The notes beneath the pieces were generated by a model. That model searched no databases. It was not told the origin of the DNA and saw only the letters and a program-made list of their open reading frames with translations. This document shows positions 916 through 58,181 of a stretch of 64,000 nucleotides of DNA, in pieces. A program made the translations under genes and the position numbers. Within the stretch, counting starts at the first letter, position 1, and each line of letters begins with the position of its first letter. This stretch comes from Geodermatophilus poikilotrophus (lineage in GTDB: Bacteria > Actinomycetota > Actinomycetes > Mycobacteriales > Geodermatophilaceae), in NCBI RefSeq assembly GCF_900111455.1, contig NZ_FOIE01000003.1, positions 124,001 through 188,000 on the forward strand, in the 5' to 3' direction.

Positions 916-1093
916 GGCCGGCTCCTCCCCGAACGCTGCACCGTCCCCCGCGAGATGATCAGCGTGGCACAGCGCGGAGTCGGCCGCTCCCGGCGAGATC
1001 GGCGACTGGCCCCGACACGACTGGCTCGGCGACGACGGGGCCGGCCTGCGGCGGGCCGCGGCCGCCGTCGGCCGGTGAGGGACACTCTGTGTC

Positions 1094-1723: not shown

Positions 1724-1795
1724 GCGTCCGACCCGGCCAGGCAACGCCGGTTGCGTGCCGGTTCACCCCCGGCCCGGCGGGGCACCCCTCCGACC

Positions 1796-3421: not shown

Positions 3422-3555
3422 ACCGGAGGACCACCCCTCCCCTCGCGACTCGGCCCCTCTCAGGCACCGCCGCGGCCTCGTCCCGAAGCTCACGCCGAGC
3501 CTGCGAGGGGTGAGGAGGACGGGGTCCTCTCACGGTGGGGGTCCTCCTGCTGGAG
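3419..3555 (+). repeat. Family A repeat, diverged copy, after the SIR2 gene
   Basis: It starts with the SIR2 gene's TGA and continues ACCGGAGGACCACCCCTCCCC, a diverged version of the element seen after helR and the hemerythrin gene. Further along it has the recurring segment GAGCCTGCGAGGGGTGAG at 3498-3515 and GTCCTC runs. It is probably a transcription terminator plus repeat debris; no gene is visible between 3422 and 3626. Confidence 0.4.
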
Positions 3556-3626
3556 GGTGGCCGTTCCAGCACCTCACCGGAGGGGCCGCGGTGTGAGCCG
3601 GCGAGGTCTGGGGCACACGGGCCCCC

Positions 3627-4862
3627 GTGCGCCGACCCCGACTCGAGAACAGCCCCCTCCTGTTCGCCAAGGGCTACGGCTGGCTGCCGGACGCCCGGCG
3701 GGCGCGCGGCCGCCGGACCGTCGCGGTCCGGCTCGGTGGCCTGCCCGCACTGGGGATCCAGGGCCCGGACGCCGCCCGCTTCCTGTACGACGAGGACCAC
3801 GTGCACCGGTCGCACGCCATCCCCGAGCCGGTGCGGGGCACGCTGTTCGGCAAGGGCGCGGTGCACACCCTCGACGGGCAGGAGCACCGCACCCGCAAGG
3901 CGATGTTCGTGTCGCTGCTCATGGACCACGACCGGATCGCCCCGCTCGTCGACTCCGCCACGGCCGCCTGGGACGCCGCGGTCCCCGGCTGGGTGGACCG
4001 CGGGGAGGTCGTGCTCTTCGACGAGGCGGCCGCGGTGCTCACCCGGGCGGCCTGCGACTGGGCCGGCGTCCCCCTGACCGACGACGAGGTCCCCTCCGTC
4101 GCCCGGGATCTCACCGCGATGGTCGACGGCTTCGCCACCGGAGGGCCCCGGCACTGGCGCGCCCGCCGGGCACGCGGCCGCCGGCAGGCGGAGCTGTCCC
4201 GGCTCGTGGCGGACGTGCGCAGCGGCGCGGTGGCGGTCCCCGGCGGCTCGGTCGTCGACGTCGTCGCCCGGCACCGTGACGCCGACGGCGAGCGGCTCGA
4301 CCCGCACACCGCGGCGGTCGAGCTGCTCAACGTGATCCGCCCGACCGTGGCCATCAGCTGGTTCCTCGCCTTCTCCGGGCACGCGCTGGCCCGCTGGCCG
4401 CAGCACGGCGAGCGGCTGGCCTCGGCCGAGCCCGCGTTCGCGGAGGCCTGGGCGCACGAGGTGCGGCGCTTCTACCCGTTCGCGCCGTTCATCGGCGGGC
4501 GCGCCCCGCGCGAGGTGGAGTGGGACGGCGAGCGGGTGCCGGCGCACTCGATGGTGCTGCTGGACCTCTACGGCCAGAACCACGACCCCGCGCTGTGGGG
4601 CGACCCGTACACGTTCCGCCCGGAGCGCTTCCTCGACCGGGAGATCGGCGCCTTCGAGCTGGTGCCCCAGGGCGCCGGGGACCCGAGCACCAACCACCGC
4701 TGCCCGGGGGAGCAGGTCACCGTCGCCGTCCTGGCCGCGCTCGCCGTCCGGCTCGCCCGGCTGCAGGCCGACGTCCCGGCGCAGGACCTGTCGATCTCGC
4801 TGCGCCGGATCCCGGCCAAGCCGGCCAGCGGCGTGGTGCTGCGGGTCCGCGGCACCGACTGA
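3627..4862 (+). CDS. Cytochrome P450, CYP152-type fatty-acid peroxygenase
   Basis: A 411-residue P450 close in size to Bacillus BSbeta. The heme-ligand segment is GAGDPSTNHRCPGEQ with Cys359. In the I helix the usual acid-alcohol pair is replaced by RPTVA, with Arg238-Pro239 corresponding to the Arg-Pro pair of BSbeta, SPalpha and OleT that binds the fatty-acid carboxylate and lets H2O2 drive the reaction. The expected activity is therefore alpha/beta hydroxylation or decarboxylation of fatty acids using peroxide and no reductase; no ferredoxin or reductase gene is adjacent. The GTG start at 3627 gives the usual N-terminal length. It is followed after about 100 bases by a small membrane protein gene. 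Confidence 0.85.
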   Translation: MRRPRLENSPLLFAKGYGWLPDARRARGRRTVAVRLGGLPALGIQGPDAARFLYDEDHVHRSHAIPEPVRGTLFGKGAVHTLDGQEHRTRKAMFVSLLMDHDRIAPLVDSATAAWDAAVPGWVDRGEVVLFDEAAAVLTRAACDWAGVPLTDDEVPSVARDLTAMVDGFATGGPRHWRARRARGRRQAELSRLVADVRSGAVAVPGGSVVDVVARHRDADGERLDPHTAAVELLNVIRPTVAISWFLAFSGHALARWPQHGERLASAEPAFAEAWAHEVRRFYPFAPFIGGRAPREVEWDGERVPAHSMVLLDLYGQNHDPALWGDPYTFRPERFLDREIGAFELVPQGAGDPSTNHRCPGEQVTVAVLAALAVRLARLQADVPAQDLSISLRRIPAKPASGVVLRVRGTD

Positions 4863-4963
4863 ACCGGCTCCGTCGCGCTCCGTTGCGAACGCGCCGGGGA
4901 CGGCGCCAGGTGTCGGTACCGCGTGGTGTCATCGCAGGGCCGTACGGACGAGGAGGACGGGAC

Positions 4964-5164
4964 ATGGGCAGGTGGCTCGCGCCGCTGGTGGGCGTGGTCG
5001 GTCTGCTGGCGCTCGTCGTCGGCATGGCCTGGGCCGAGCTCGACAAGAGCACCATCAACGGCGTGCCCCTGGTCGGCGCCGGCGGCGTGCTGCTCCTGGC
5101 CGCGGCGATCGTGGCCGCCTCCGCGGAGGTCTCCACCCGCCGCCGGGACGCGCTGCCCCGCTGA
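4964..5164 (+). CDS. Small two-helix membrane protein, unknown
   Basis: A 66-residue protein with a strong AGGAGGACGGG ribosome site just before ATG 4964. Hydrophobic stretches at about residues 5-23 and 37-53 indicate two transmembrane helices joined by a polar loop (AELDKSTINGVP), with a basic C-terminus. I do not recognise a family. It lies downstream of the P450 gene with its own ribosome site and is followed directly by a terminator-like repeat. Confidence 0.65.
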   Translation: MGRWLAPLVGVVGLLALVVGMAWAELDKSTINGVPLVGAGGVLLLAAAIVAASAEVSTRRRDALPR

Positions 5165-5185
5165 GCCGCCACGAGCGGCCCCTGC

Positions 5186-5285
5186 ACGGTCCCGCCGGCC
5201 CCGTCCGGAGGCTCACCCCGAGCGTGCGAGGGGTGAGGGGGACGGGGCCCTCCGACGGGTGGCAGGGGCAGGGGGTCCTCCCTCA
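5186..5285 (-). terminator. Family A repeat / terminator hairpin after helR
   Basis: On the minus strand it starts at the TGA stop of helR and runs GGGAGGACCCCCTGCCCC into a two-stage hairpin: outer arms GGCCCCGTC/GACGGGGCC and inner arms CTCACCCC/GGGGTGAG around TCGCACGCT. It lies between convergent genes (small membrane protein and helR), so it can terminate both. It is almost identical over about 90 bases to the copy after the hemerythrin gene at 8131-8219. Confidence 0.65.
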
Positions 5286-7580
5286 GGCGAGGCGGGCGAG
5301 TTCCCCGGGCAGGTCGCCGGGGGAGAGCACGCCGAGCCGCTGGGTGGCCCGGGTGAGCGCCACGTAGAGGTCGTTGTGCCCGCGCACGCCCTCGTCGAGC
5401 ACCCGCTGCGGGTCGACGACGAGCACCGCGTCGAACTCCAGGCCCTTCGCCTCGGCCGGCGTGAGCACCACCGGCCCCCGCGACGAGTCGGCGTCCGGGC
5501 CGGACGAGACGCCGTCCACCCGGGCTGCGGCCGCTGCGGTGAGCTCGGCGACCCGGCCGGCCGGGGCGACGACCGCGGTGGTGCCCTCGTGCGCCGCCCA
5601 CTCCTCGACCACCTCGGCGGCGCGGGCGGCCAGCCCGTCCTCCCCGGTGACCTCCGCCCACGGCTCGGCGGTTCCCGGCCGGACCGAGCGCGGTGCACTC
5701 GCCCCGGTGCCGCCCGCGGCGAGGACGTCGGCGGCGACCGCCATGATCTCGGCCGGCGTCCGGTAGTTGACCGTGAGCTCCTCCAGCCGCCAGGCGTCGC
5801 CGACGTGCGGCCGCAGCGTCTCGTCCCAGACGGCCGCGCCGGCCAGCGTGCCGGTCTGGGCGAGGTCGCCGACGGCGGTCATCGACCGGGTCGGGCAGCG
5901 GCGCACCAGCAGCCGCCAGGCCATCGCGGAGAGCTCCTGGGCCTCGTCGACGACGACGTGCCCGAACGTCCAGGTGCGATCGGCGGCGGCCCGCTCGGCG
6001 GTGGTGCGGGTGTCGAGCGCCCGCTGCCGCTCGGCCAGCTCCTCGGCGCTGATCAGGTCGCCGGCGCTGAGCACCTCGGCCTCCAGGTGCTCGTCCTCCA
6101 GGTCGATGGAGCGCGAGCCGTGCAGCACGTCGAGGGTCTCCTGCGCCTCGGCCAGCCGCCGGCGGCGGTCCCGCTCGGCGCGGGCCCGCTGCGCGCTGTC
6201 GTCGAAGCCGAGCAGCTCCTCGGCCTCCTCCAGCAGCGGGACGTCGGCCGGCGTCCAGCCCGATCCCCGCGGCCGGTGCAGCAGCGCGCGCGTCCGGTCG
6301 TCCCACCCCGGGGTGGCGGCGGCGACGCGGGCGGGGTCGGCGAACAGGTCGGTCAGCAGCCGCTCGGGGGTGAGCACCGGCCACAGGTCGTCGACGAGCA
6401 GCCGGACGGCCGGCTCCTCGGCCACCTCGCGGCGCAGCGCGGCGGTGTCCTCGCGGTCGAGCAGGTCCGAACCGCCGTCGATGCCCAGACCGATCCGCTC
6501 GGCGTAGCGGCGGGTGAGCAGGTCGACGACGCGGCGGGCGAACACCGGTCGGGCCAGGTTGTGCAGCGAGTCGGCCCGGCGGGCGGCGTTCTGCGCGCGC
6601 TTCACGTCGATCGGCCGCAGCCGCAGCGCGAACCCGTCGACGGTCACCTCGCGCGGGGCGTCGGGCACGACCTGCCGGTCGGCGACGGCGCGCTCGAGCA
6701 CCTCCACCATCTCCAGCCGGCCCTTGACCGCGGCGGTCTCCGGCGACTCGGTGCCGCGGGCGTCCAGGCCGGGGCGCAGCTGGCCGAGGCCGGCCAGCAG
6801 CACGCCGGTCTCGCCGAGGGAGGGCAGCACGTCGGCGATGTAGCGCAGGAACGTGGGGGTCGGGCCGACGACGAGCAGGCCGCGGCGGGCCAGCCGTTCG
6901 CGGTGGGTGTACAGCAGGTAGGCCGCGCGGTGCAGCGCGACGGCGGTCTTGCCGGTGCCCGGCCCGCCCTGCACGACCAGGACGCCGCGGTCGTCGGCGC
7001 GGATGATCCGGTCCTGCTCGGCCTGGATGGTGCGGACGATGTCGGTCATCCGGCCGGTGCGGGCGGTGTCGAGGGCGGCCATGAGCGCGACCTCGCCGGT
7101 CAGCCCCGACCCCGCGACCCCCTCGGTCAGTACCTCGTCGTCCAGCCGGACGACGGTGCGCCCGCGGGTGCGGATGTGCCGGCGGCGCGCCACGCCCAGC
7201 GGGTGCACCGGGGTGGCGGTGTAGAACGGCCGCGCGGCCGGCGCCCGCCAGTCGACCAGCGCGGGGTCCCCGCCGGCGTCGTCGGCGGCCAGCCCGATGC
7301 GGCCGATGTAGAGCGGGCCGTCGTCGGTGCGGTCGATCCGGCCGACGCACAGGCCGGCCTCGGCGGCGTCGAGGGCGGTGACCCGCTCGGTCTGGAAGCG
7401 GACGGTCGCGTCGCGCTCCTGCAGCGCCTGCGGGTCGACCGCGGGCCACGAGATGGCCTGCTTCAGCCGTCGCTCGGCCAGGTCGCGGGCGGCGTCGAGG
7501 CGGGCGTAGAGCTCCTTGACGTACTGCTGTTCGGTGTCGATCTCCGGGTGGGACACGACCTCGGGCTGCGTCGTCGGCAC
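5283..7580 (-). CDS. helR: HelR/HelD-type RNA polymerase recycling ATPase
   Basis: A 765-residue superfamily-1 helicase-like protein. It opens with EIDTEQQYVKELYARLDAARD, the N-terminal coiled-coil of HelD proteins. It has Walker A GGPGTGKT (Lys211) and a DEAQELSAMAW motif, plus a C-terminal UvrD-like half with NYRTPAEI and VALTRATQRLGVL. HelD and HelR bind RNA polymerase, pry it from nucleic acid and use ATP to recycle stalled complexes; actinobacterial HelR also displaces rifamycins and gives tolerance. GTG 7580 is chosen because longer openings add low-complexity residues without family similarity. A palindrome with core TGCGGCAA lies 22 bases upstream, resembling the rifamycin-associated element known before helR genes. 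Confidence 0.85.
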   Translation of the reverse strand: MPTTQPEVVSHPEIDTEQQYVKELYARLDAARDLAERRLKQAISWPAVDPQALQERDATVRFQTERVTALDAAEAGLCVGRIDRTDDGPLYIGRIGLAADDAGGDPALVDWRAPAARPFYTATPVHPLGVARRRHIRTRGRTVVRLDDEVLTEGVAGSGLTGEVALMAALDTARTGRMTDIVRTIQAEQDRIIRADDRGVLVVQGGPGTGKTAVALHRAAYLLYTHRERLARRGLLVVGPTPTFLRYIADVLPSLGETGVLLAGLGQLRPGLDARGTESPETAAVKGRLEMVEVLERAVADRQVVPDAPREVTVDGFALRLRPIDVKRAQNAARRADSLHNLARPVFARRVVDLLTRRYAERIGLGIDGGSDLLDREDTAALRREVAEEPAVRLLVDDLWPVLTPERLLTDLFADPARVAAATPGWDDRTRALLHRPRGSGWTPADVPLLEEAEELLGFDDSAQRARAERDRRRRLAEAQETLDVLHGSRSIDLEDEHLEAEVLSAGDLISAEELAERQRALDTRTTAERAAADRTWTFGHVVVDEAQELSAMAWRLLVRRCPTRSMTAVGDLAQTGTLAGAAVWDETLRPHVGDAWRLEELTVNYRTPAEIMAVAADVLAAGGTGASAPRSVRPGTAEPWAEVTGEDGLAARAAEVVEEWAAHEGTTAVVAPAGRVAELTAAAAARVDGVSSGPDADSSRGPVVLTPAEAKGLEFDAVLVVDPQRVLDEGVRGHNDLYVALTRATQRLGVLSPGDLPGELARLA

Positions 7581-46723: not shown

Positions 46724-47404
46724 TCAGGTGCGCACCGGCAGGCCGAGGGCCTGCGCCCACAGCCGGGTGAGCGCGGCGACCAGGCGCTCCTGCTCGAACT
46801 CGCCGTCGAGCACCAGCCAGTAGTGCACCAGCCCGTTGACCATCGCGACGAGCGCGTGCGCGCTGTACTCGGCGTCGAGGTCGGCGGCGACCAGGCCGTC
46901 GCGCTGCAGCTGCTCGATGCTGTGCCGCACCCGGCCGACGTTGCGCTCCCGGGCGGCCTGGCGCAGCGCCCGCACCTCCGGGTCGAAGGTGGTGACCTGC
47001 TCGAACAGCGCCATCAGCGCGGTGTTCTGCCGGTACATGGCGACGAACCGGCGGTTGGCCCGGTCGATGCGGTGCACCGCGACCTCCTCCGGTGAGCCGT
47101 CCGGCGGGCCCGGCTCGTGGCGGGTCCCCATCGAGGCGTAGAGGTCGTCCATCGTCTCGGCCACGAGCGCCCGGAAGACGGCGGTCTTGGAGCCGAAGTA
47201 CGTGTAGAAGCTGCCGTGCGCGACACCGGCCGCCGCCGAGATGTCGGTGACCCGGGCCTCGAGGAAGCCGTCCCGCTCGAACACCTCGCGGGCCGCGGCC
47301 AGCAGCCGGGCCCGCATCCGGCGGCCGCGCTCGGTCGTCGGCAGGGCGGCCGGGGCGGTGCCGGCCGGGCCGCTCACCGCCTCCGGTGGTGGGGGCACGG
47401 GCAC
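46724..47404 (-). CDS. TetR family transcriptional regulator
   Basis: A 226-residue regulator. Helix-turn-helix at about 45-70: VTDISAAAGVAHGSFYTYFGSK. The ligand-binding C-terminal domain is similar to acyl-CoA-responsive TetR proteins. It diverges from the acyl-CoA synthetase operon; a 24-bp palindrome lies between. It probably represses the 47494-56168 operon until an acyl-CoA intermediate binds (inference). Confidence 0.8.
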   Translation of the reverse strand: MPVPPPPEAVSGPAGTAPAALPTTERGRRMRARLLAAAREVFERDGFLEARVTDISAAAGVAHGSFYTYFGSKTAVFRALVAETMDDLYASMGTRHEPGPPDGSPEEVAVHRIDRANRRFVAMYRQNTALMALFEQVTTFDPEVRALRQAARERNVGRVRHSIEQLQRDGLVAADLDAEYSAHALVAMVNGLVHYWLVLDGEFEQERLVAALTRLWAQALGLPVRT

Positions 47405-47418
47405 CTCCGGCCCTCGTC

Positions 47419-47442
47419 GTTGACATTGACGTCGGTGTCAAC
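47419..47442 (+). promoter_or_regulatory. TetR operator overlapping a promoter
   Basis: Arms GTTGACA (47419-47425) and TGTCAAC (47436-47442) are symmetric about 47430.5 with the palindrome GACGTC in the centre. TTGACA within the left arm is a good -35 box, and TTAGCT at 47443-47448, 17 bases on, is a possible -10. A repressor bound here would block transcription of the acyl-CoA synthetase operon and could autoregulate the TetR gene. Confidence 0.65.
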
Positions 47443-47493
47443 TTAGCTGCTGTCCAGCTCCGCTGTCGTCCCCCCGAGGAGGCGTGCCGCCCG

Positions 47494-49638
47494 ATGACCG
47501 TGCCGACGCCGGACCCGCAGGACGACGGTCTGCAGGCGCTGCTGCGACCGCGCGGGATCGCGCTGCTCGGCATCTCGGGCCGGTCGGAGAACCTGATGTC
47601 CCGGCCGCTGCGCTACCTGGTCGAGCACGGGTACGAGGGCGGCCTCTACCCGGTCAACCCGAACTACGAGGAGCTGGTCGGCCGGCGCTGCTACCCGACG
47701 CTGGCCGACGTCCCGGGCCCGGTCGACCTGGTGCTCGTGCTGGTCGCCGCCGACCGGGTGGAGGACGCGATCCGGCAGGCCGCCGCGGTCGGCGCGCGGG
47801 CGGCGGTCGTCTACGCCTCCGGCTTCGCCGAGGTGGGTCCTGCGGGCGTGGCGCTGCAGCAGCGGCTGGCCGCGGTGGCCCGGGAGACCGGCGTCCGCGT
47901 CGTCGGACCCAACTGCCAGGGCTTCCTGTACGCGCCCACCGGCGTGGTGGCCACCTTCACCGCCGCCGCCGACCGGCCGCTGACCTCCGGCAGCGGGGTG
48001 GCCTACGTCGGGCAGAGCGGCGCCGTGGGCGGCTCGGTGCTCGACCTGGCCACCGACATGGGACTGGGCCTGGCGGCGTGGTTCAGCACCGGCAACCAGG
48101 CCGACCTGGACCTGACCGAGGTCTCGCTGCACCTGCTGGCCGACCCGACGGTGCGGGTGCTGATGCTCTACGTGGAGGCCACCGGGAACGGCGCGGCCTA
48201 CGCCGAGCTGGCCCGCCGCGCGCAGCTGGCCGGCACGTCGCTGGTCGTGCTGCGTTCGGGCCGGTCCAGCGCCGGGCGCCGGGCGGTGGCCAGCCACACC
48301 GGCTCGATGCTCGGCGACGACGTCGCCTTCGTGCTCACCTCCCGGCGGTACGGCGTGGTGCTGGTCGACGACATCGACGAGCTGCTCGCGGTCGCGGCGG
48401 TGCTCGCCGCGGGGAAGCCGGCCGAGGGGCCGCGGGTCGCCGTCGTCACGACCTCCGGCGGGGCCGGCAGCCTGGCCGCCGACCAGTGCGAGGACGTCGG
48501 CCTGCAGCTGCCCGAGCTGTCGGCGGCGACGCAGGCGCGGCTGCGCCCGCTGATCCCGCCCTTCGGTGCGCTGGCGAACCCGGTCGACGTCACCGCGCAG
48601 CTGTTCAACCGGGGGGCGCACGCCTTCGGGGACGTCTGCCGGATCATCGCCGAGGACGACGCCGTGGACGTCGTCGCCGTCCTGGTGACCATGGTCGTCG
48701 GCGACGCCGGCGCCCGGCTGGCCGAGGACCTCGTCGCCACCGCGGCCAAGCTGCGCTGCCCGCTGCTGGTCGGCTGGATCGCCGGGCAGGAGCTGACCGC
48801 CGAGGGCCGCCGGGTGTTCCGCGAGGCCGGCGTCCCGGTGTTCGGCTCGGTGGGCGACCTCGCCCGCGTCGCCGCGCGGCTGGCCCCGCCGCGGCACCGG
48901 GGCACCCCGCCGCCGCTGCCGCCGGTGCCCGACGTCCCGGCCGCCGAGGTGCGCGCGCTGCTCGAGGGGCCGGTGGTGGACGGCCCGGCGCTGCTGCGGT
49001 CGATCGGCATCGCGCAGCCGGCGTCCACGCTGGTGACCGGCCCGGAGGCCGCGCAGGAGGCGGTCGCCGCGCTGCCCGGCCCGGGTGTGCTCAAGCTCGC
49101 CGCCGCGGACCTGGCGCACAAGAGCGAGGTCGGCGGGGTGCGGGTCGGCGTGGGCCCCGACGAGGCGGCGGGCGTCTTCACCGAGCTGCTCGACGCCGCG
49201 CGCCGGCACCACGTCCCCGGCGTCGAGGGCGTGCACGTGCAGGAGCTCGTCCCGCCGGGCACCGAGCTGATCCTCGCGGTCACCGCCGGGCGCGACGGCT
49301 TCCCGCCCGTGGTGACCGTCGGCCTCGGCGGGGTGACCACCGAGCTCTACCGCGACCTCGCCTCGGCGCTGGCCCCGGTCTCGCCGGAGGAGGCGTGGGC
49401 GATGCTGCGCAGCCTGCGGGCCTGGCCGCTGCTGGCCGGCTTCCGCGGCGCCGAGCCCGCCGACGTGCCGGCCGCGGTCGACGCCGTCGTCCGGCTGTCG
49501 CAGGCGGCGGTGGCCGCGGGCGACCGGCTGGCCGAGTTCGAGGTGAACCCGCTCATCGTCGCGCCGCGCGGCCGGGGGGCGACCGCCGTCGACGTCCTGG
49601 TGCGCACCACCGGCTCGCGGGAGCCGGTGGGCGAGTAG
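47494..49638 (+). CDS. ADP-forming acyl-CoA synthetase (acetate-CoA ligase family)
   Basis: A 714-residue fused alpha-beta enzyme: CoA-binding domain (RPRGIALLGISG, SGFAEVGPAG, VVGPNCQGF), a ligase domain with the phospho-His in VASHTGSMLGDD, and a C-terminal ATP-grasp half (LKLAAADLAHKSEVGGVRVGV). It activates a carboxylic acid to its CoA ester with ATP to ADP. First gene of the TetR-controlled operon, so it probably commits the substrate. ATG 47494, GAGGAGG upstream. Confidence 0.85.
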   Translation: MTVPTPDPQDDGLQALLRPRGIALLGISGRSENLMSRPLRYLVEHGYEGGLYPVNPNYEELVGRRCYPTLADVPGPVDLVLVLVAADRVEDAIRQAAAVGARAAVVYASGFAEVGPAGVALQQRLAAVARETGVRVVGPNCQGFLYAPTGVVATFTAAADRPLTSGSGVAYVGQSGAVGGSVLDLATDMGLGLAAWFSTGNQADLDLTEVSLHLLADPTVRVLMLYVEATGNGAAYAELARRAQLAGTSLVVLRSGRSSAGRRAVASHTGSMLGDDVAFVLTSRRYGVVLVDDIDELLAVAAVLAAGKPAEGPRVAVVTTSGGAGSLAADQCEDVGLQLPELSAATQARLRPLIPPFGALANPVDVTAQLFNRGAHAFGDVCRIIAEDDAVDVVAVLVTMVVGDAGARLAEDLVATAAKLRCPLLVGWIAGQELTAEGRRVFREAGVPVFGSVGDLARVAARLAPPRHRGTPPPLPPVPDVPAAEVRALLEGPVVDGPALLRSIGIAQPASTLVTGPEAAQEAVAALPGPGVLKLAAADLAHKSEVGGVRVGVGPDEAAGVFTELLDAARRHHVPGVEGVHVQELVPPGTELILAVTAGRDGFPPVVTVGLGGVTTELYRDLASALAPVSPEEAWAMLRSLRAWPLLAGFRGAEPADVPAAVDAVVRLSQAAVAAGDRLAEFEVNPLIVAPRGRGATAVDVLVRTTGSREPVGE

Positions 49639-49704: not shown

Positions 49705-50442
49705 GTGGGACAGATCCAGTTGGAGCGGCAGGGCGGCGTGGCCGTGTTCACGGTCGACTCGCCCGAGGTCAGGAACGGGCTCACCCCGGAGATGGGGCTG
49801 CAGCTGTCGGAGCTGTGCGACGAGGTGGACGCCGACCCGGCGATCGGCGCGGCGGTCGTCCGGGGCGCGGGCGGCACCTTCTGCTCCGGCGCGGACCGCC
49901 GGCGCTGGACGCCGGGCAGCGACCAGGCCGAGGACAAGACGTACAAGGAGCTCGGCGCGGTCTACACCGCCTTCCGCCGGGTGGGCACGCTGCAGGTGCC
50001 GACCATCGCCGCGGTGCGCGGCGCCGCGGTCGGCGCGGGGATCAACCTGGCTCTCTCCACCGACCTGCGCATCGTCTCCGAGAGCGCCCGGCTGCTCGCC
50101 GGGTTCCTGCGCATCGGCCTGCACCCGGGCGGAGGCTACTTCACGATCAGCAGCCGGACGGCGGGCCGCGAGGCCACCGCCGCGATGGGCCTGTTCAGCG
50201 AGGAGATCGACGGCGTGCGCGCCGCCGAGATCGGCCTGGCCTGGAAGGCGGTGCCCGACGACCAGGTCGAGGACCTCGCCCTGGAGCTCGCCGGCCGCGC
50301 CGCCAAGGACCCGGAGCTGGCCCGCGAGGCGGTCCGCTCCTTCCGCACCGAGGCCGGCCCGCCCGGGATCGGCTGGGAGGCCGCGCTGCACTTCGAGCGG
50401 GCCACCCAGATGTGGTCGCAGCGGCGGCGCGAGACCGCCTGA
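49705..50442 (+). CDS. Enoyl-CoA hydratase/isomerase family protein
   Basis: A 245-residue crotonase-fold protein: GAGGTFCSGADRRRW (oxyanion hole) and AAVRGAAVGAGINLALSTDLRI. The catalytic glutamates of true hydratases are not seen: the GLLPE-type motif reads GLHPGGGYF. It may therefore catalyse another crotonase reaction such as isomerisation, hydrolysis or C-C cleavage. GTG 49705. Second gene of the operon. Confidence 0.75.
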   Translation: MGQIQLERQGGVAVFTVDSPEVRNGLTPEMGLQLSELCDEVDADPAIGAAVVRGAGGTFCSGADRRRWTPGSDQAEDKTYKELGAVYTAFRRVGTLQVPTIAAVRGAAVGAGINLALSTDLRIVSESARLLAGFLRIGLHPGGGYFTISSRTAGREATAAMGLFSEEIDGVRAAEIGLAWKAVPDDQVEDLALELAGRAAKDPELAREAVRSFRTEAGPPGIGWEAALHFERATQMWSQRRRETA

Positions 50443-50506: not shown

Positions 50507-51643
50507 GTGCAGTTCGCGCCGACCGTGCTCGCCCCGGCCGAGGAGGCACTGCGCGCCGAGGTGCGCGAGTTCCTCGCCGCCGAGCTCCCCGCCGGGCACC
50601 GGCCGGCGCTCGGGTTCGCCGGCCGGCACGACCCGGAGTTCTCCCGCACGCTGGCCAAGCGCGGCTGGGTCGGCATGGCGATCCCACCGGAGTACGGCGG
50701 CCACGGCCGCAGCGCCGTCGACCGCTTCCTCGTCGCCGAGGAGCTGCTCGCCGCCGGCGCCCCCATCGGCGCGCACTTCGTCGCCGACCGGCAGACCGCG
50801 CCGGCGCTGCTGCACTTCGGCACCGAGGAGCAGCGGCAGCGCTTCCTGCCGGGCATCGCCGCGGGCGAGGTCTACTTCTCCCTCGGCATGAGCGAGCCGG
50901 ACTCCGGCTCCGACCTCGCCTCGGTGCGCACGAGGGCCACCCGGGTCGAGGGCGGCTGGACGGTCACCGGCACCAAGGTGTGGACCAGCGAGGCCCACCG
51001 CAACCACTTCTTCGCCGTGCTCTGCCGGACCTCCCCGGTCGAGGAGGGCCGCAAGCACGCGGGCCTGTCCCAGCTGCTCGTCGACCTCGCGGCGCCGGGC
51101 GTGCGCATCTCGCCGATCCCGTACCTCGACGGCAGCCACCACTTCAACGAGGTGGCGCTGGAGGACGTGTTCGTGCCCGACGACATGGTGCTCGGCGAGC
51201 TCGGCTCCGGCTGGCAGCAGGTGACCAGCGAGCTGGCCTACGAGCGCAGCGGCCCCGACCGCTGGCTGTCGACCTTCCCGGTGCTGCGGGAGTGGCTGCG
51301 CGAGCGCGGGGCCGACGTCTCCGGTGAGGAGGCCGTCGTCCTCGGCCGGCTGGCGGCCCGGTTCCGGGCGATCCGGCAGCTGTCGCTGTCGGTCGCCCGC
51401 GCACTCGACGCCGGGGCGGCGCCCGCGGTCGAGGCGGCGCTGGTCAAGGAGGTCGGCACCCGCTTCGAGCAGGACCTCGTCGAGGCGCTGCGCGACGCCG
51501 CGGAGACCGAGCTCGACCAGGGCTCGGGCTCGCTGTTCTCGGCGCTGCTCGCCGAGGCGGTGCTGACCTCGCCGTCGTACACGCTGCGCGGCGGCACCAC
51601 CGAGATCCTCCGCTCCGTCGCCGCGAAGGGACTGTCCGCATGA
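50507..51643 (+). CDS. Acyl-CoA dehydrogenase, larger subunit-type
   Basis: A 378-residue acyl-CoA dehydrogenase very similar to that at 12762-13922: GMSEPDSGSDLASVRTRA, YLDGSHHFNEVALEDVFVP and YTLRGGTTEILRSVAAKGL. It oxidises the acyl-CoA made by the synthetase. GTG 50507 has GAGGAGGG upstream. Stop overlaps the next subunit's start (ATGA). Confidence 0.85.
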   Translation: MQFAPTVLAPAEEALRAEVREFLAAELPAGHRPALGFAGRHDPEFSRTLAKRGWVGMAIPPEYGGHGRSAVDRFLVAEELLAAGAPIGAHFVADRQTAPALLHFGTEEQRQRFLPGIAAGEVYFSLGMSEPDSGSDLASVRTRATRVEGGWTVTGTKVWTSEAHRNHFFAVLCRTSPVEEGRKHAGLSQLLVDLAAPGVRISPIPYLDGSHHFNEVALEDVFVPDDMVLGELGSGWQQVTSELAYERSGPDRWLSTFPVLREWLRERGADVSGEEAVVLGRLAARFRAIRQLSLSVARALDAGAAPAVEAALVKEVGTRFEQDLVEALRDAAETELDQGSGSLFSALLAEAVLTSPSYTLRGGTTEILRSVAAKGLSA

Positions 51644-52707
51644 GCGACGACCGCGCGGTGCTGACCGAGGTCGCCACCGGCCTGTTCCGCGACCTGTGCA
51701 CCCCCGAGGACGTCGTCGCCGCGGAGGCGACCGGCTGGAGCGAGCGGCTCTGGACGGCGCTCACCGAGTCCGGGTTCCCGCTGGTGTCGGTGCCCGAGGA
51801 GGCCGGCGGATCCGGCGGGGACGTCGCCGACGCCTGCGCGCTGCTCACCGTCGCCGGCCGCTCCGCCGCGCCGGTGCCGTTGGCCGAGACCGGACTGCTC
51901 GCCGGCTGGGCGCTGGCCGCGGCCGGGCTGCAGCTGCCGGAGGGCCCGCTGTCGGTGGCCGTCGGCGCGCCCGGGGACGCCGTCGAGCTCAGCGGCCGCC
52001 GGTTCTCCGCGCGGCTGTCCCGGGTGCCGTGGGGCGGGCGCAGCGACCGGGTGGTCGCCTTCGCGGCGAGCGGCGGGCAGCGGTTCGTCGTCTCCGCGCC
52101 TCCCGCCGCCGCGACCGTCACGCCCGGCCGCAACCTCGCCGCCGAGCCGCGCGACACCCTGGTGTGGGACGACGTCGAGCTGCCCGACGACGCGGTGGCA
52201 CCGGCCCCGCCCGGGGTGGACGCCGCGGCGCTGCGGCTGCGCGGCGCGCTGGCCCGCGCAGCGCTGATCGCCGGGGCGCTGGCGCGGGTGGCCGAGCTGA
52301 CCGTCCGCTACACCGGCGAGCGGCAGCAGTTCGGCCGCCCGGTCGCCCGGTTCCAGGCGGTGCAGGCGCACCTGGTCACCATCGCCGAGGAGGCGCAGCT
52401 GGCCGGGCTCGCCGTCCAGGTGGCCGCGCTGAACGCCCGCCCCGACCCGTCGTTCCTCGACGTCGCGGCGGCGAAGACGGCGGCCGGCGAGGCGGCGACG
52501 GTCGCGGCGCGCGCGTCCCACCAGGCGCACGGCGCGATCGGCATGACCAAGGAGTACGAGCTCGGCCAGCTCTCCCGCCGGCTGTGGTCCTGGCGCGACG
52601 AGTTCGGCAGCGAGCGCCACTGGAGCCGCGAGCTGGGCCGGCAGCTGGCCGCCGAGGGCGCCGACGCGCTGTGGCCGCGGATCTCCACCGGGCTGGTGGA
52701 GGCGTGA
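51640..52707 (+). CDS. Acyl-CoA dehydrogenase, smaller partner subunit
   Basis: A 355-residue homologue of the 13987-15057 protein: FPLVSVPEEAGGSGGD, ERQQFGRPVARFQAVQAHL and HQAHGAIGMTKEYELGQLSRR. Overlap with the preceding gene supports a heterotetramer. Its TGA overlaps the GTG of the flavoprotein-selenoprotein gene. Confidence 0.8.
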   Translation: MSDDRAVLTEVATGLFRDLCTPEDVVAAEATGWSERLWTALTESGFPLVSVPEEAGGSGGDVADACALLTVAGRSAAPVPLAETGLLAGWALAAAGLQLPEGPLSVAVGAPGDAVELSGRRFSARLSRVPWGGRSDRVVAFAASGGQRFVVSAPPAAATVTPGRNLAAEPRDTLVWDDVELPDDAVAPAPPGVDAAALRLRGALARAALIAGALARVAELTVRYTGERQQFGRPVARFQAVQAHLVTIAEEAQLAGLAVQVAALNARPDPSFLDVAAAKTAAGEAATVAARASHQAHGAIGMTKEYELGQLSRRLWSWRDEFGSERHWSRELGRQLAAEGADALWPRISTGLVEA

Positions 52708-54116
52708 GCACCGACTGGGACGTCGTCGTCGTGGGCGCCGGGATCGCCGGGCTGACCGCCGCGCGGGTCGCCGCCGAGCACGGCCTGCGGGTGGTCGCCT
52801 ACGACCGGCTGACCCCCGGCGGCCAGCTGGTCAACCTCACCGCGCTGCACGAGCACCCGGGCGGCACCGGGCCGGAGCTGGTGGCGGCGCTCACCGCCGC
52901 GGCCGAGGGGGCCGGGGTCCGTCTGGCGTACGCGGAGGTCACCCGCGTGCACCCGGGCTCGCCGGTGCGGCTGGAGACCTCGGGCGGCGAGGTCACCGCC
53001 GGCGCGGTCGTCGTCGCGACCGGGCTCGGTCCCGGTCGGCTGGGGCTGCCGGGGGAGGAGGCGCTCGCCAGGCGCGGCGTCTCCACCTGCGCCGGCTGCG
53101 ACGGCCCGCTGTTCCGCGGCCGCGCGGTCGCGGTCGTCGGCGACGACGAGTGGACGGCGGAGGAGGCGCTCGAGCTGGCCGGCTGGGCGTCCGCGGTGAC
53201 GGTGCTGGTGCCGGGGCAGCCGCGGTGGTCGCCGGACCGGGCGGCGCGGCTGGCGGCCGCCGAGCGGGTCGAGGTGGTCCCGGATGCGACGGTCACCGCG
53301 CTGCGCGGCGAGGGCGTGCTGTCCGGCGTCGTCGTCCGCACCGCCGACGGGGAGCGCGCGCTGGCCGTCGCCGGGCTGTTCCCCTTCGTGGGCCGCCGCG
53401 GGCCCGAGGGCCTGGTCGAGGGGCTGGCCGCCGACGCGCAGGGCCGACTGGTGCCGTCGGGCGGGGTGCTCGTGGCCGGTGACGCCCGGGCCGGTGCGGA
53501 GCAGTCGCTGACCGCCGCCGAGGCCGACGGGCGCGCCGCCGGGGAAGCCGCCCTCGGGGCGCTGGCGGCGTCCTCCGGGTCGCTGCGGATCGTGGACCCG
53601 ACCCACGGCGTGCTGCCGGAGGTCGACGCCGCGCCGGTGGGCGCCGGGAGCACGGCGACGTGGACCGACGTCGCGCTGTTCACCAACTCCAAGCCGAACG
53701 CGACCGAGCTGCTGCGCGGACTCGGCGAGCGGCTGCAGGCGCACTGGGGGCTGCCCGAGCTGGGCTTCGCGGCCAAGGAGAACGCCTCGGTCGCGGCCGA
53801 GAAGGACACCATCGACTGGCTGTCGCAGCGCTTCAAGATGGTGCTCGTTGCGGTCGGCGACTAGGGCTCGTGCTCGTCGTGGAGTCTCCACGACTCGGTG
53901 GAACTGGAGCGGCGCGGCGTCGTCGCACCGCTGGTGGTGACCGAGACGTTCCTGCCGCTGGTGCAGGCGCAGGCCCGGGCGCGGCGGGTGGAGCCCCGCC
54001 TGGTCGTCGTCCCGCACCCGGTCGGCGGGCTGAACGAGGCCGAGCTGGCCGGCCGGATCGAGGGCGCGGCGGCGGAGCTGCTGCGGATGGCCGACGAGGC
54101 GAGGGGAGGGGCGTGA
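52704..54116 (+). CDS. TrxR-like flavoprotein fused to UGSC selenoprotein (UAG = Sec)
   Basis: An in-frame UAG at 53862-53864 is proposed to encode selenocysteine 387 of a 470-residue protein. Residues 1-~290 are thioredoxin-reductase-like: VVVGAGIAG near residue 8, redox CAGC (Cys129, Cys132) followed by DGPLF, and the closing VAGDARAGAEQSL. Residues ~293-470 match UGSC-family proteins: LFTNSKPNATELL, AAKENASVAAEKD, then GD-U-GSCSSWSLHD across the UAG, and ELERRGVVAPLVVTETF with VVVPHPVGG after it. If UAG were a stop, the product would be 386 residues and lack the family's motif; the downstream frame has no good ribosome site. A SECIS-like hairpin follows the UAG. Other genes here still end at TAG. 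Overlaps both neighbours. Probable role: thiol/selenol redox chemistry linked to acyl-CoA breakdown. Confidence 0.85.
53876..53894 (+). promoter_or_regulatory. bSECIS-like hairpin downstream of UAG-Sec codon
   Basis: Stem GTCGTGGA (53876-53883) pairs with TCCACGAC (53887-53894) around GTC; read more openly, TCGTGG/CCACGA encloses AGUCU. Counting the UAG as bases 1-3, the loop G and U are at 23 and 24, the positions SelB needs in E. coli fdhF (AGGUCU loop). The bulged U17 of fdhF is not matched (C here). Confidence 0.7.
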
Positions 54117-55141
54117 GCGCCGGACTGCTCGACCTGCCCGGGGTCACGGAGGAGAGCTGGCAGGAGGAGGCCCACCGCCGCGGTTGGGGCGACGGGCTGC
54201 CGCTGGTCGCGCCGACCCCGGCCCGGGTGGCGGCGGCGCTGGCCGCGCTCGACGGCATCGACCTGGAGCTCGGTCCGCTGCCGCCGTCCGGGCTGGTGCC
54301 GACCCGGGAGAGCTTCGCGGCGAACGCGGTGATGGCCGGCTGCCGGCCGGTGGACCTGCCGGTGGTGCTCGCGGCCGTCCGCGCGCTGCAGGCCCCGGAG
54401 TACAACCTGCACGGCGTGCTGGCGACGACCCACCCCTGCGCGCCGATGGTCGTCGTCAACGGCCCGGTGCGCGGGACGCTCGGCATCAACTCCGGCAGCA
54501 ACTGCCTGGGCCAGGGCACCCGGGCCAACGCCGTCATCGGCCGGGCGGTGCAGCTGGTCACCACGCACGTCGGCGGCGCGCGCCCGGGCGTGATGGACCG
54601 GGCGACGCAGGGCAGCCCGGCCAAGTACTCGTTCTGCTTCGGCGAGAACGAGGAGGACAGCCCGTTCCCGCCGTTCTCGGTGCGCCGGGGCTTCGCGCCG
54701 GGGGAGTCGGTGGTGACGGTCGCGGCGACCGAGGGGCCGCACAACGTCAACGACCACGGCGGGACGACGGCCGAGGACCTGCTGCTCACCATCGCCGGGA
54801 CCATGGCCCAGCCGGGGTCGAACAACGTGTACGTCAAGGGCCCGCACTTCCTGGTGCTCGGCCCGGAGCACGCGGCCACCTTCGCCCGCGACGGGTGGAC
54901 GGCCGACGCGGTGCGGGACGCGCTGTGGGAGCGGGCGCGGATCCCGGTGGCGGAGGTGTCGGAGGCCAATCAGCGGCAGTTCGAGGACTGGGGCGTGGTG
55001 CCCGACAACGACGCCTACCCGGTGAGCACCGGCCCGGAGATGCTGCACGTGCTGGTGGCCGGGGGAGCGGGCAAGCACTCGGCGTGGATCCCGTCGTTCG
55101 GTGCGACGGCGGCGGTGTCGCGACCGGTCCCCGGTGCCTGA
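54113..55141 (+). CDS. Unknown protein of the UGSC operon (paralogue 1)
   Basis: A 342-residue soluble protein; family not recognised by me. It shares a common plan with the next gene: GDGLPLVAPTPARV, VNGPVRGTLGINSG, NAVIGRAVQLV, GSPAKYSFCFGENEE and GGAGKHSAWIPSFG. The Cys in SPAKYxxC and the Cys in MAGCRPVDLP are shared, as is a glycine-rich segment. GTG 54113 overlaps the selenoprotein stop. A redox or thiol-transfer partner of the UGSC protein is suggested only by context. Confidence 0.65.
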   Translation: MSAGLLDLPGVTEESWQEEAHRRGWGDGLPLVAPTPARVAAALAALDGIDLELGPLPPSGLVPTRESFAANAVMAGCRPVDLPVVLAAVRALQAPEYNLHGVLATTHPCAPMVVVNGPVRGTLGINSGSNCLGQGTRANAVIGRAVQLVTTHVGGARPGVMDRATQGSPAKYSFCFGENEEDSPFPPFSVRRGFAPGESVVTVAATEGPHNVNDHGGTTAEDLLLTIAGTMAQPGSNNVYVKGPHFLVLGPEHAATFARDGWTADAVRDALWERARIPVAEVSEANQRQFEDWGVVPDNDAYPVSTGPEMLHVLVAGGAGKHSAWIPSFGATAAVSRPVPGA

Positions 55142-56168
55142 GCTGCCGCTGTTCCCCCCGGACGCCGATCCGGCGGCGGTGGCCGCCGACCTGCTGGCCG
55201 CGGGGCACGGCGACGGGCTGCCGGTGGTGCCGCCGACCGCGGCCCGGCTCGACGCGGTGGTGGCCGGGGCCGCCGACCCGGACGCCGCCCTGGGGCAGGT
55301 GCCACCGCTGTTCGGCGAGCTGACCGTGCGGGCCGTGGCCTGGTACGCGGTGCTGGCCGGGTGCCCGGCGCCCGCGCTCCCGGTGGTGGTAGCCGCGTGC
55401 CGGGCGGCGCTGGAGCCGGGGTTCAACCTGCTCGGCCTCGCGACCACGACCGGGGCGCCGGCGGTGGGCGTGCTGGTGCACGGGCCGGTCGCCCGCCGGG
55501 TCGGGATGACCTCGGGCGCGGGCGGGCTGGGCACCGGGAACGCGGGGAACGCCGGCGTCGGGCGGGCGGTCTCCCTCGCCCTCGCCGGGATCGGCGGGGC
55601 ACGCGCCGGACTGACCGACATGGCGACGATCGGCTCGCCGGCGAAGTACACCTGCTGCACGGCGGAGGCGCCCCGTCCGCTGCCCTCGCTGGCCCAGCGG
55701 CGCGGGCTCGGGGTGGACGTCGACGCGGTGACCGTGGTTGGGGTCGGCGGGCTGGTCGAGGTGCTGCCGGGTGAGGGGTACCGCGAGCCGCCGTCCGTGC
55801 TGGGTCCGGCTGCGGCGGCGATGGCGGGCGCGGCCATGGCCGCCGGGGACCCGGGCCGCTTCCGGGACGGCGAGCAGTTCCTGCTGCTGCCGCCGGAGCT
55901 CGCCGCGCTGGTGGGGGAGCAGGGCTGGGGCGCCGACCGGATGGCCGGGTTCCTCTTCGAGCAGGGCAGCGCGCTGCTGCGGGCGTCGGCGTCCGCGCTG
56001 GCGTTCCGCGCGGGACTGCCGGTCTACGCCGCCGGGGACCTGCGCGTGGCGGCCTCGGCGGACGACGTCCGGGTCGTGGTCACCGGCGGGGCGGGCGGGA
56101 AGATGGCGCTGCTGCCGACCTGGGCGGGGGGCTCGCGGTCGGTGACCGCCGCCGTCCGCCCGCTCTGA
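55134..56168 (+). CDS. Unknown protein of the UGSC operon (paralogue 2)
   Basis: A 344-residue paralogue of the preceding gene: GDGLPVVPPTAARL, VHGPVARRVGMTSG, NAGVGRAVSLA, GSPAKYTCCTAEAP and GGAGGKMALLPTWAGG. The SPAKYxxC Cys is kept and doubled (TCC). GTG 55134 overlaps the previous stop by 8 bases. The pair probably forms a heteromeric complex. Last gene of the operon, followed by a family B hairpin. Confidence 0.65.
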   Translation: MPELPLFPPDADPAAVAADLLAAGHGDGLPVVPPTAARLDAVVAGAADPDAALGQVPPLFGELTVRAVAWYAVLAGCPAPALPVVVAACRAALEPGFNLLGLATTTGAPAVGVLVHGPVARRVGMTSGAGGLGTGNAGNAGVGRAVSLALAGIGGARAGLTDMATIGSPAKYTCCTAEAPRPLPSLAQRRGLGVDVDAVTVVGVGGLVEVLPGEGYREPPSVLGPAAAAMAGAAMAAGDPGRFRDGEQFLLLPPELAALVGEQGWGADRMAGFLFEQGSALLRASASALAFRAGLPVYAAGDLRVAASADDVRVVVTGGAGGKMALLPTWAGGSRSVTAAVRPL

Positions 56169-56279: not shown

Positions 56280-58181
56280 CTACCCGGGGGTGCAGGGGGA
56301 CGACATCGAGGGCGGGGTGTCCAGCGCGGGGTTGCGGTCGAAGAAGCCGACCGGCACCAGCCGGAAGCCGGCCACCTCGACCGGCATGACCGGCCAGTCC
56401 TCCGGGCGCGGGAAGTGGGTCGCCCCGAAGGTGTGCCACAGCACGACGTCCTCGTCCTCCAGCGACCGGTTCCCGGACACGAACGCCGGCAGCCCACCCG
56501 CGTCGGCCAGGTCGCCGGCGGCGTACCGCTGCGCGGGGTCGTACCGGGTCACCCACAGGTGCCTGGTCGCGAACGCCGCCCGGCGGTGGGTGGACGACGA
56601 CTCGTCGGCCAGCAGCACCGGCCTGCCCTCGGGCACGAGCGCGTAGGCCACCGGCTGGCCCAGCCGGTTGGTCACCGACGGGTTCACCACGTGCCACACC
56701 CGGTCGACCAGCGGGTCGGCCATGCGCTGGGCCGTCCACTCCCGCGTGAGCGCCGTGCGCCGACGGCGGAAGGCCCTGCCGTCCGGGTCGGTCCGGCTGA
56801 CCGGTTCCCGCACCGCGTCCACCTCGTGGACCGTGTTCGTCCGCCCGTCGACCGCCATGTCCAGCCGGGCGCAGAACAGGTGCTGGTGGAACGGCGCCCC
56901 CGGCCCGTGCCCGGCCTCCGTCGCGCAGGGGTACTCGGCGCCGCGGTGGGTGGACGCGAAGGGCAGGCCGGTCGCCCGCACCTCGAGCTGGACGACCCCG
57001 TCGAGGTGCAGGTACCAGGAGAAGCCGTAGTCGTAGCTCCCGACGGTGGTCGAGGTCCTGACCACCAGCCGCCGCTGCCGCCGGGTCCGGGACGTGGCGC
57101 TGGAGAAGTCGGTGTGCCTCCAGAGGATCCCGGCGTCCTCCTCGTGCAGGGAGACGGCGCGCGGGACGACCTGCGGCCGGCCGTCGTCGTCGGCCAGTGG
57201 CACGTCGAGGAACCGCATCTCGCCCAGGCAGTCGCAACCCGGGTCGGGGGAGGTGCCGAACCGGCCGAAGAGGTACTCGCCGGCGTCGGCGTAGTCCTGC
57301 CAGGAGCGCACGGGGAAGGGGTCGGCGTGCGGCACCACCATCTCGGCGATGGACGCCCGGTGGATGACCGACCGGCCGTCGTGGGTGACCTGGTGCAGCG
57401 ACAGCCCCTCGCGGCTGTCGAAGCCGATGCGGAACTCCCAGCCGGCCCAGCGCACGACGTCGTCCTCGACGGCGCAGGCGGGTCCCCCCGGCGAGGTGCT
57501 CCCGGTGCGCCGGGGGTCCCTGGCCGGGGGGACGGCGGGCGGCGGCGCGTTCTCCTGCCCGCGCTCGGCCGGCACCGGCAGGTCGAGCGCGTCGTGCACC
57601 GCGATGGCCCGCCGCCGGGTGAGGTCGAGGTAGGCGACGAGGCCATCGACCGGTCGGGCCCGCGAGACGTCCTGCGGACCGGTCCGCTGGAAGCCGAGCA
57701 CGCGGATCGTCCGGCGTCCGTACTGCTCGGAGCAGCCGTACATCCCGGCGGTGAGCGGAACGGCGCGGACGCTCCCGACGTCGAGCCCGCGTCGCGCCAG
57801 CGCGGCCCGCCAGCGCTCGTCCCCGGCCAGCAGCTCCCCGGCCTCCGCGAACTCCTCGGGCAGGAGCGGGACCCGGCCCTCGGGAGCCACGTCGACCCCG
57901 GTGTCGCGGACGACGGTCCGGCGGGTCAGCGACACCGACAGGTCGCGGGCCCGGCAGGTGACCCGGTCCAGCAGCAGCACCCGCACGCGGCGGTCGACGT
58001 CCGTGCCCGGGGTCCAGCCGAGGACCTCGGCCTTGTCCGGCTCCTCCAGGCCGACGTAGACGAAGCGGGTCGTGCCGGTGAGGATCCCGGCGACCAGTTC
58101 CCGGACCGCGTCGATCTCCTCGGCCGTCAGCCGCGACAGCGGGTGGCGGACGGCGGTGGCGGGGGCTGCGGTGGCGGTCAT
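56280..58181 (-). CDS. Copper amine oxidase
   Basis: A 633-residue quinoprotein amine oxidase with N2/N3 domains (RFVYVGLEEPDKAEVLGW) and the large catalytic domain. Copper ligands are in HQHLFCARLDM and in THFPRPEDWPVMP. The cofactor tyrosine is Tyr383 in VGSYDYGF; the residue before it is Ser382, where the family has Asn. LGCDCLG-like CDCLGEMRFLD is present. It oxidises a primary amine to aldehyde, ammonia and H2O2. Whether the Ser slows TPQ formation is unknown. No signal peptide, so cytosolic. ATG 58181. Confidence 0.85.
   Translation of the reverse strand: MTATAAPATAVRHPLSRLTAEEIDAVRELVAGILTGTTRFVYVGLEEPDKAEVLGWTPGTDVDRRVRVLLLDRVTCRARDLSVSLTRRTVVRDTGVDVAPEGRVPLLPEEFAEAGELLAGDERWRAALARRGLDVGSVRAVPLTAGMYGCSEQYGRRTIRVLGFQRTGPQDVSRARPVDGLVAYLDLTRRRAIAVHDALDLPVPAERGQENAPPPAVPPARDPRRTGSTSPGGPACAVEDDVVRWAGWEFRIGFDSREGLSLHQVTHDGRSVIHRASIAEMVVPHADPFPVRSWQDYADAGEYLFGRFGTSPDPGCDCLGEMRFLDVPLADDDGRPQVVPRAVSLHEEDAGILWRHTDFSSATSRTRRQRRLVVRTSTTVGSYDYGFSWYLHLDGVVQLEVRATGLPFASTHRGAEYPCATEAGHGPGAPFHQHLFCARLDMAVDGRTNTVHEVDAVREPVSRTDPDGRAFRRRRTALTREWTAQRMADPLVDRVWHVVNPSVTNRLGQPVAYALVPEGRPVLLADESSSTHRRAAFATRHLWVTRYDPAQRYAAGDLADAGGLPAFVSGNRSLEDEDVVLWHTFGATHFPRPEDWPVMPVEVAGFRLVPVGFFDRNPALDTPPSMSSPCTPG

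What the first reader, a model, noticed from the sequence alone, without database searches (positions are those of the whole stretch)
52704..54116. UAG-encoded selenocysteine in a UGSC-family protein
A reading frame interrupted only by TAG at 53862 continues in frame for 83 more codons. The bases across the TAG spell GD-*-GSCSSWSLHD, exactly where UGSC-family proteins have Sec (or Cys) before Gly-Ser-Cys. Both flanks match the family. Seen directly: frame, motif, missing ribosome site downstream. Established: UAG-programmed Sec is reported for Geodermatophilus and Blastococcus. Inference: this genome has a tRNA-Sec with anticodon CUA.
Basis: partly seen in the sequence, partly recalled or inferred. 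Interest (0 to 1): 0.97.

Follow-up and report, generated by a model that had tools for sequence, protein, structure and literature searches.

The report
Selenocysteine written as UAG
In this Geodermatophilus-like bacterium a redox-enzyme gene carries the stop codon TAG exactly where related proteins have selenocysteine or cysteine, and the genome encodes a selenocysteine tRNA whose anticodon matches UAG, so the codon is likely read as selenocysteine: a real but already reported code variant.

Summary
Confirmed, but not a new phenomenon. Frame 52704-54116 is open except for TAG at 53862. It encodes a thioredoxin-reductase-like domain (CAGC) fused to a UGSC domain; TAG sits at the Sec/Cys of Sec-Gly-Ser-Cys. 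The genome has one tRNA-Sec, anticodon CUA, beside selD, selA and selB, plus RF1. A bSECIS-like hairpin follows (6 bp, 5-nt loop 18 nt after TAG): stem and loop are present in 38 of 38 distinct UAG/UGA UGSC genes examined and 0 of 16 Cys versions. A second UGSC gene and formate dehydrogenase in the same genome have UAG plus hairpin. Of 112 family genomes, 101 match the CUA tRNA-Sec pattern; in three other genera the seven tRNAs read are UCA, and formate dehydrogenase uses UGA in the three genomes where the site was read. A SelA tree needs one change. UAG-Sec in Geodermatophilaceae UGSC proteins is already in print (PMC5330540 and its reference 56). Extra, outside the window: a genome listed as Geodermatophilus marinus also carries a foreign UCA tRNA-Sec about 300 bp from an AhpD-like gene with UGA at its CxxC position, a candidate two-codon selenocysteine genome. 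No protein evidence exists here.

The parts
52704..54116 (+). selenoprotein gene: TrxR-like domain (about residues 1-285, CAGC) fused to a UGSC domain (about 296-470); GTG start overlaps the stop of the gene before
53862..53864 (+). in-frame TAG, predicted selenocysteine codon (residue 387)
53877..53893 (+). bSECIS-like hairpin TCGTGG-AGTCT-CCACGA, 18 nt between TAG and loop
   Evidence: the minimum-energy fold draws it as an 8-bp stem with a 3-nt loop
54113..55141 (+). partner protein A, no Pfam family, usually beside UGSC genes
   Evidence: model pLDDT 83, pTM 0.87
55101..56168 (+). partner protein B, 36% identical to A in the alignment (start may lie a little downstream)
51640..52707 (+). 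acyl-CoA dehydrogenase, same operon
50507..51643 (+). acyl-CoA dehydrogenase, same operon
49705..50442 (+). enoyl-CoA hydratase, same operon (found in L120 too)
47386..49638 (+). ADP-forming acyl-CoA ligase-like gene, same operon (found in L120 too); start not settled

Best explanation
The gene at 52704-54116 is a thioredoxin-reductase-like/UGSC fusion whose in-frame TAG at 53862 is predicted to be read as selenocysteine by the genome's CUA-anticodon tRNA-Sec, with SelB and the hairpin that follows the codon. Seen directly: the TAG at the Sec position, the hairpin sequence, the CUA tRNA-Sec, selA/selB/selD, RF1, and two more genes built the same way. Inferred: SerRS charges the tRNA; SelA with selenophosphate from SelD makes Sec-tRNA; SelB binds the hairpin and outcompetes RF1 at this UAG only, so other UAGs still stop translation. 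The protein would pass electrons NADPH to FAD to CAGC to the Sec-Gly-Ser-Cys pair and act with partner proteins A and B on an unknown substrate linked to acyl-CoA metabolism. The code state likely arose inside the family, when an ancestral UCA/UGA system changed once to CUA/UAG.
For: Codon: of 95 UGSC matches in 112 family genomes, 72 hold one TAG, 23 no stop, 0 a TGA (my count of its rows). Elsewhere the site is TGA (L081), TGC or TGT. tRNA: CUA in the window genome; CUA pattern in 101 of 112 family genomes and in 2 of 394 of a class sample, both of this family, where the UCA pattern finds 76 of 394; the pattern read backwards hits 0 and 1 genome. Machinery: selD 382.6 bits, selA 412.1, selB 278.1, each above its cut-off, near the tRNA. 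Hairpin: stem of 5-6 pairs plus AGTNT loop in 38 of 38 distinct Sec-type genes against 0 of 16 Cys-type; the loop-closing pair switches G-C to C-G with the codons. Other genes: formate dehydrogenase L190:1496 and UGSC L110:7685, TAG with a 6-bp hairpin at the same spacing. History: SelA tree, CUA group one change, support 100/100, 0 of 500 shuffles as low. Redox wiring: fused here, while L081 has UGSC(TGA), A, B and a TrxR-like protein as four neighbouring genes.
Against: No selenium, mass-spectrometry or expression data. RF1 is present and TAG ends 5 of 43 genes in a rough GC-based count (pieces overlap, and one may be the UGSC gene itself), so UAG must be a stop elsewhere. The read-through scores 104 bits to NF041046, below its 125-bit cut-off. 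The hairpins are not unusually stable (z -1.68 here, 0.77 for formate dehydrogenase). The stem alone does not separate the groups: 7 of 16 Cys genes also have 5 of 6 pairs; the loop does. The UGA formate dehydrogenase of the UCA genera is only a distant relative of the UAG one (33-36% identical around the site), so it is no codon swap within one orthologue. Electron path, partners' roles and substrate are inference; domain packing in the model is uncertain (pTM 0.49).
Confidence: 0.95

Rival explanations
1. The TAG is a true stop: the cell makes a 386-residue reductase and the rest is a relic (nonsense mutation).
For: Databases hold it so: the 120 listed relatives (300-414 aa; many named thioredoxin reductase, others NAD(P)/FAD-dependent oxidoreductase or unnamed) all end at the residue before the TAG position. 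RF1 is present.
Against: The 83 codons after TAG score 57.7 bits to UGSC and stay open in 9 of 9 named orthologues, all with TAG; a relic would drift. Hairpin and matching tRNA are unexplained.
Confidence: 0.03
2. The tRNA is a pyrrolysine tRNA and UAG means pyrrolysine.
For: ARAGORN labels the CUA tRNA tRNA-Pyl.
Against: That label follows the anticodon: the molecule fits RF01852 over all 91 positions at 65.1 bits, lies near selA/selB/selD, and the codon replaces Cys/Sec sites with a bSECIS. pylS was not searched for.
Confidence: 0.005
3. Sequencing or assembly error for TGA or TGC.
For: None found.
Against: Same TAG in 9 of 9 named genomes and one TAG in 72 of 95 family matches (the two sets share some genomes).
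Confidence: 0.003
4. Regulated dual output: with little selenium the UAG ends translation and the 386-residue reductase is itself useful; with selenium the fusion is made.
For: The TrxR-like domain is complete before the TAG; RF1 is present.
Against: The short product would also carry half of a UGSC domain (to residue 386). Not excluded; compatible with the main reading.
Confidence: 0.1

Closest known systems
UAG-programmed selenocysteine of Geodermatophilus and Blastococcus (Mukai et al. 2016, title and abstract recalled; paper not held here; cited as reference 56 in PMC5330540)
   Same: CUA tRNA-Sec, UAG at the Sec site of UGSC proteins and formate dehydrogenases, same family (passages of PMC5330540 read)
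   Different: This genome is a further instance. The family-wide count, the UCA/UGA sister genera, the TrxR fusion with partners, and the Sec/Cys hairpin contrast come from calls here; whether the 2016 paper shows any of them was not checked.
UGSC-containing selenoproteins (PMC2398784, 2008; passages read)
   Same: UGSC motif, predicted redox role; fusion of UGSC with an unknown domain already described there (Unknown_1)
   Different: UGA there; here UAG and an N-terminal TrxR-like domain. Whether Unknown_1 is partner A was not tested.
Bacterial-type thioredoxin reductase, e.g. PDB 4up3, 1f6m
   Different: Below the TrxB equivalog cut-off (161.4 of 343.45 bits); carries a C-terminal UGSC domain

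Membership tests
UAG-programmed selenocysteine system | in-frame UAG at the Sec position of a known selenoprotein family | tested here: met
UAG-programmed selenocysteine system | tRNA-Sec with anticodon CUA in the same genome, no UCA one | tested here: met
   two matches over the RF01852 cut-off: one is the CUA tRNA-Sec, the other tRNA-Ser
UAG-programmed selenocysteine system | selA, selB, selD | tested here: met
   each above its curated cut-off
UAG-programmed selenocysteine system | bSECIS after the codon | tested here: met
   sequence level only
UAG-programmed selenocysteine system | selenium found in the product | not testable with these tools
   needs 75Se or mass spectrometry
UGSC family, Pfam PF24696 | profile match above gathering score on both sides of the Sec site | tested here: met
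   42.5 and 57.7 bits, cut-off 25
UGSC_fam equivalog, NCBIfam NF041046 | curated cut-off of 125 bits | tested here: not met
   104 bits for the read-through; the other UGSC gene of this genome reaches 135.2. Filed under PF24696, not under this equivalog.
thioredoxin reductase TrxB, TIGR01292 | curated cut-off of 343.45 bits | tested here: not met
   161.4 bits; called TrxR-like domain only
pyrrolysine system | pylS and pylBCD | not tested
   tRNA fits tRNA-Sec and neighbours are sel genes

The most novel reading that the evidence does not exclude
A genome can write selenocysteine with two codons at once. In Geodermatophilus marinus (G058) the family's UAG system (CUA tRNA-Sec, UAG formate dehydrogenase, UAG UGSC, one SelA/SelB) coexists with an IS-flanked, lower-GC island that carries its own UCA tRNA-Sec and, about 300 bp away, an AhpD-like gene whose UGA stands for a CxxC cysteine and is followed by a bSECIS-like hairpin. 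A UGA selenoprotein that moved into a UAG-Sec host brought the tRNA it needs.
Probability: 0.6. Interest if true: 0.88.

Novelty: new member of a known kind. Interest (0 to 1): 0.6.

Why it matters
It confirms a natural change in which stop codon means selenocysteine, and bounds it: the change sits between genera of one family, with both states alive, so the steps (anticodon, codons, SelB, hairpin) can be compared and tested. It also shows that public databases cut these proteins at the active site: all 120 listed relatives of this fusion end just before the TAG. If G. marinus really uses both codons, it is a natural test of whether one SelB can serve two codons.

Tried and rejected
Pseudogene, base error and pyrrolysine: see rivals. 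An apparent TGA in the formate dehydrogenase of a CUA genome (G079) was followed up: a deletion and frame change there remove the Sec site, so it is no exception.

Dropped or partial: one search gave loci for 30 genomes only. The SECIS comparison used 54 distinct UGSC genes in the loci held then, those with motif D[stop or C]GSC; stop-free copies in L115-L118 and L121 did not appear under that motif and were not scored. The SelA tree used 28 of 35 loci tried; the other 7 had no usable SelA hit, among them all three g5 loci, so genus g5 is not on the tree. L039 and L110 are the same place. One search's list was cut; of the 46 stop-bearing rows I counted in it, 45 show TAG. UGA at the formate dehydrogenase site was read in three g7 genomes; in G067, G068, G070 and G072 the match does not reach the site.

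Paper searches for UAG-Sec here. A search for a dual-codon case returned 2,361 loose matches, of which only ten titles and abstract starts were seen; so no claim is made that the G. marinus case is absent from print.

Full report
What is there. The frame 52704-54116 is 386 codons, TAG, 83 codons, TGA. It starts with GTG overlapping the stop of an acyl-CoA dehydrogenase gene and ends overlapping the GTG of the next gene, as in a translationally coupled operon (read by eye). Residues 1-285 are a thioredoxin-reductase-like domain with CAGC; from about 296 a UGSC domain follows. Pfam UGSC stops at the residue before TAG and resumes at the residue after it, missing one position.

The codon. In nine named genomes (6 Geodermatophilus, 3 Blastococcus) the site is TAG; in an alphaproteobacterial MAG (L081) TGA; in two Natronomonas TGT; in two Pseudonocardia and one Actinophytocola TGC. 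Across 112 genomes of the family, 54 have UGSC matches, 95 in all: 72 with one TAG, 23 without a stop, none with TGA (my count of its rows).

The machinery. The window genome (G000; Geodermatophilus-like by 85-92% identity of the UGSC domain to named Geodermatophilus) has one tRNA-Sec, CUA, at C12:394964, with selD, selA and selB around it. RF1 is present, so UAG is also a stop.

The hairpin. 18 nt after the TAG comes loop AGTCT closed by TCGTGG/CCACGA. The E. coli fdhF loop GGUCU has, as I recall it, the same spacing. In 38 of 38 distinct UAG/UGA genes examined, 5 (4 genes) or 6 (34 genes) of 6 pairs and an AGTNT loop stand at that spacing; in 16 of 16 Cys genes the loop is absent, although 7 of them keep 5 of 6 pairs. 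The closing pair changes G-C to C-G between subfamilies together with the codons. A scan with loop offsets 9-29 finds three sites in about 129 kb of G000 sequence held (overlaps included), and all three are Sec sites: this one, UGSC L110:7685 and formate dehydrogenase L190:1496.

The code switch. tRNA-Sec is found in 108 of 112 family genomes: 101 match the CUA pattern; the other seven, all in genera g5-g7, read UCA. In the 61 tRNA reads the CUA arms carry GGC-CTCTAAA-GCC and the g5-g7 arms GGT-CTTCAAA-ACC, so a stem pair differs along with the anticodon. Formate dehydrogenase shows TAG in 45 of the 46 stop-bearing rows that I counted in the cut list; the exception is a deletion. In three g7 genomes it shows TGA, in a gene only distantly related (33-36% around the site). 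In 394 genomes of the class the CUA pattern hits 2, both of this family; the UCA pattern hits 76. On the SelA tree of 28 rows, without g5, CUA is one side of one branch, 100/100. So the switch most likely happened once within the family; the direction rests on UCA being the state found elsewhere.

What the protein does. UGSC genes travel with partner A: 24 of 25 loci examined have it (two of the 25 are one place). UGSC and A share one frame in L084, L119 and L125, and a Pseudonocardia protein, P0041, begins with the post-Sec half of UGSC and continues as A (by eye). In L081 UGSC(TGA), A, B and a TrxR-like protein are four adjacent genes; in Geodermatophilus TrxR and UGSC are fused. This supports one electron chain, NADPH-FAD-CAGC-Sec/Cys, serving A and B. 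The operon with an acyl-CoA ligase, enoyl-CoA hydratase and two acyl-CoA dehydrogenases recurs in L120, and its two dehydrogenases in L072, L077, L078 and L080, whose stretches end there. Substrate unknown.

Prior knowledge. PMC5330540 (passages read) states that three Geodermatophilaceae genomes have CUA tRNA-Sec, that formate dehydrogenases and UGSC-motif selenoproteins were reported in its reference 56, and adds a UAG AhpC in Blastococcus saxobsidens. Reference 56 (Mukai et al. 2016) is not held; I know its abstract by recall. PMC10778597 (passages) repeats that some species use UAG or UAA for Sec. A 2026 review of prokaryotic selenoproteins (PMC13188914) mentions UAG only in engineering and annotation contexts in the passages I saw. 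The finding is therefore a good catch of a known code variant in a further genome.

An unexpected relative. G058, 100% complete, has two tRNA-Sec genes: CUA with selA and selB on C11, and UCA on C17. The UCA one has 69 identical of 96 aligned columns to the CUA one, whereas the CUA one is 84 of 92 to the UCA tRNA of a g7 genome. C17 shows no selA, selB or selD by tblastn in the four pieces searched. Its stretch 1001-5500 has 59-63% GC against 73-78% for the three pieces further along, with ISAs1 and IS30 transposase genes on either side. At L087:1870 a frame with TGA inside, read through, fits the peroxidase-related AhpD family (TIGR01926, 112.4 bits, cut-off 81.8). The TGA aligns with the second Cys of CxxC in solved AhpD-type chains, reading CFYU; NF041238 is a named AhpD-related selenoprotein family (its name holds CFYUT), but its cut-off is not met (51.7 of 175 bits). 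A 6-bp hairpin with loop AGTTT follows, 16 nt between TGA and loop. A C17 protein is listed under Geodermatophilus marinus on a 69,133-base contig, and parts of a 3-kb piece from the middle of C17 match two other genomes of the genus at 79-87%, so the contig is of this genus; a wrong join at the IS30 copy is not excluded. Its formate dehydrogenase and UGSC use TAG.

Noticed in passing
L087:1173-1263 (-) and L087:1570-2154 (+), G058 contig C17 (Geodermatophilus marinus): Second tRNA-Sec with UCA anticodon beside an AhpD-like gene with in-frame TGA (CFY*M) and bSECIS-like hairpin, in a genome whose formate dehydrogenase and UGSC genes use TAG.
   Followed up: partly
window 54113-55141 and 55101-56168: Two homologous proteins with no Pfam or NCBIfam match, the first from a large family (6884 relatives in a capped search) and found in 24 of 25 UGSC loci examined.
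   Followed up: partly
G079 (genus g8), L194: Its Sec-type formate dehydrogenase has lost the Sec site by a deletion and frame change.
   Followed up: yes
NZ_CP110115.1 and NZ_LR134459.1 (L212, L213): selA, selB, tRNA-Sec (UCA), selD and a formate dehydrogenase together on plasmids of Arthrobacter and Tsukamurella: a possible route for moving UGA-Sec systems among actinobacteria.
   Followed up: partly
G037:C25 and G037:C168: Two CUA tRNA-Sec genes in an 88%-complete genome, possibly mixed strains.
   Followed up: no
window 56280-58181 (-): Copper amine oxidase gene (PF01179, 435.8 bits) next to the operon on the other strand.
   Followed up: no
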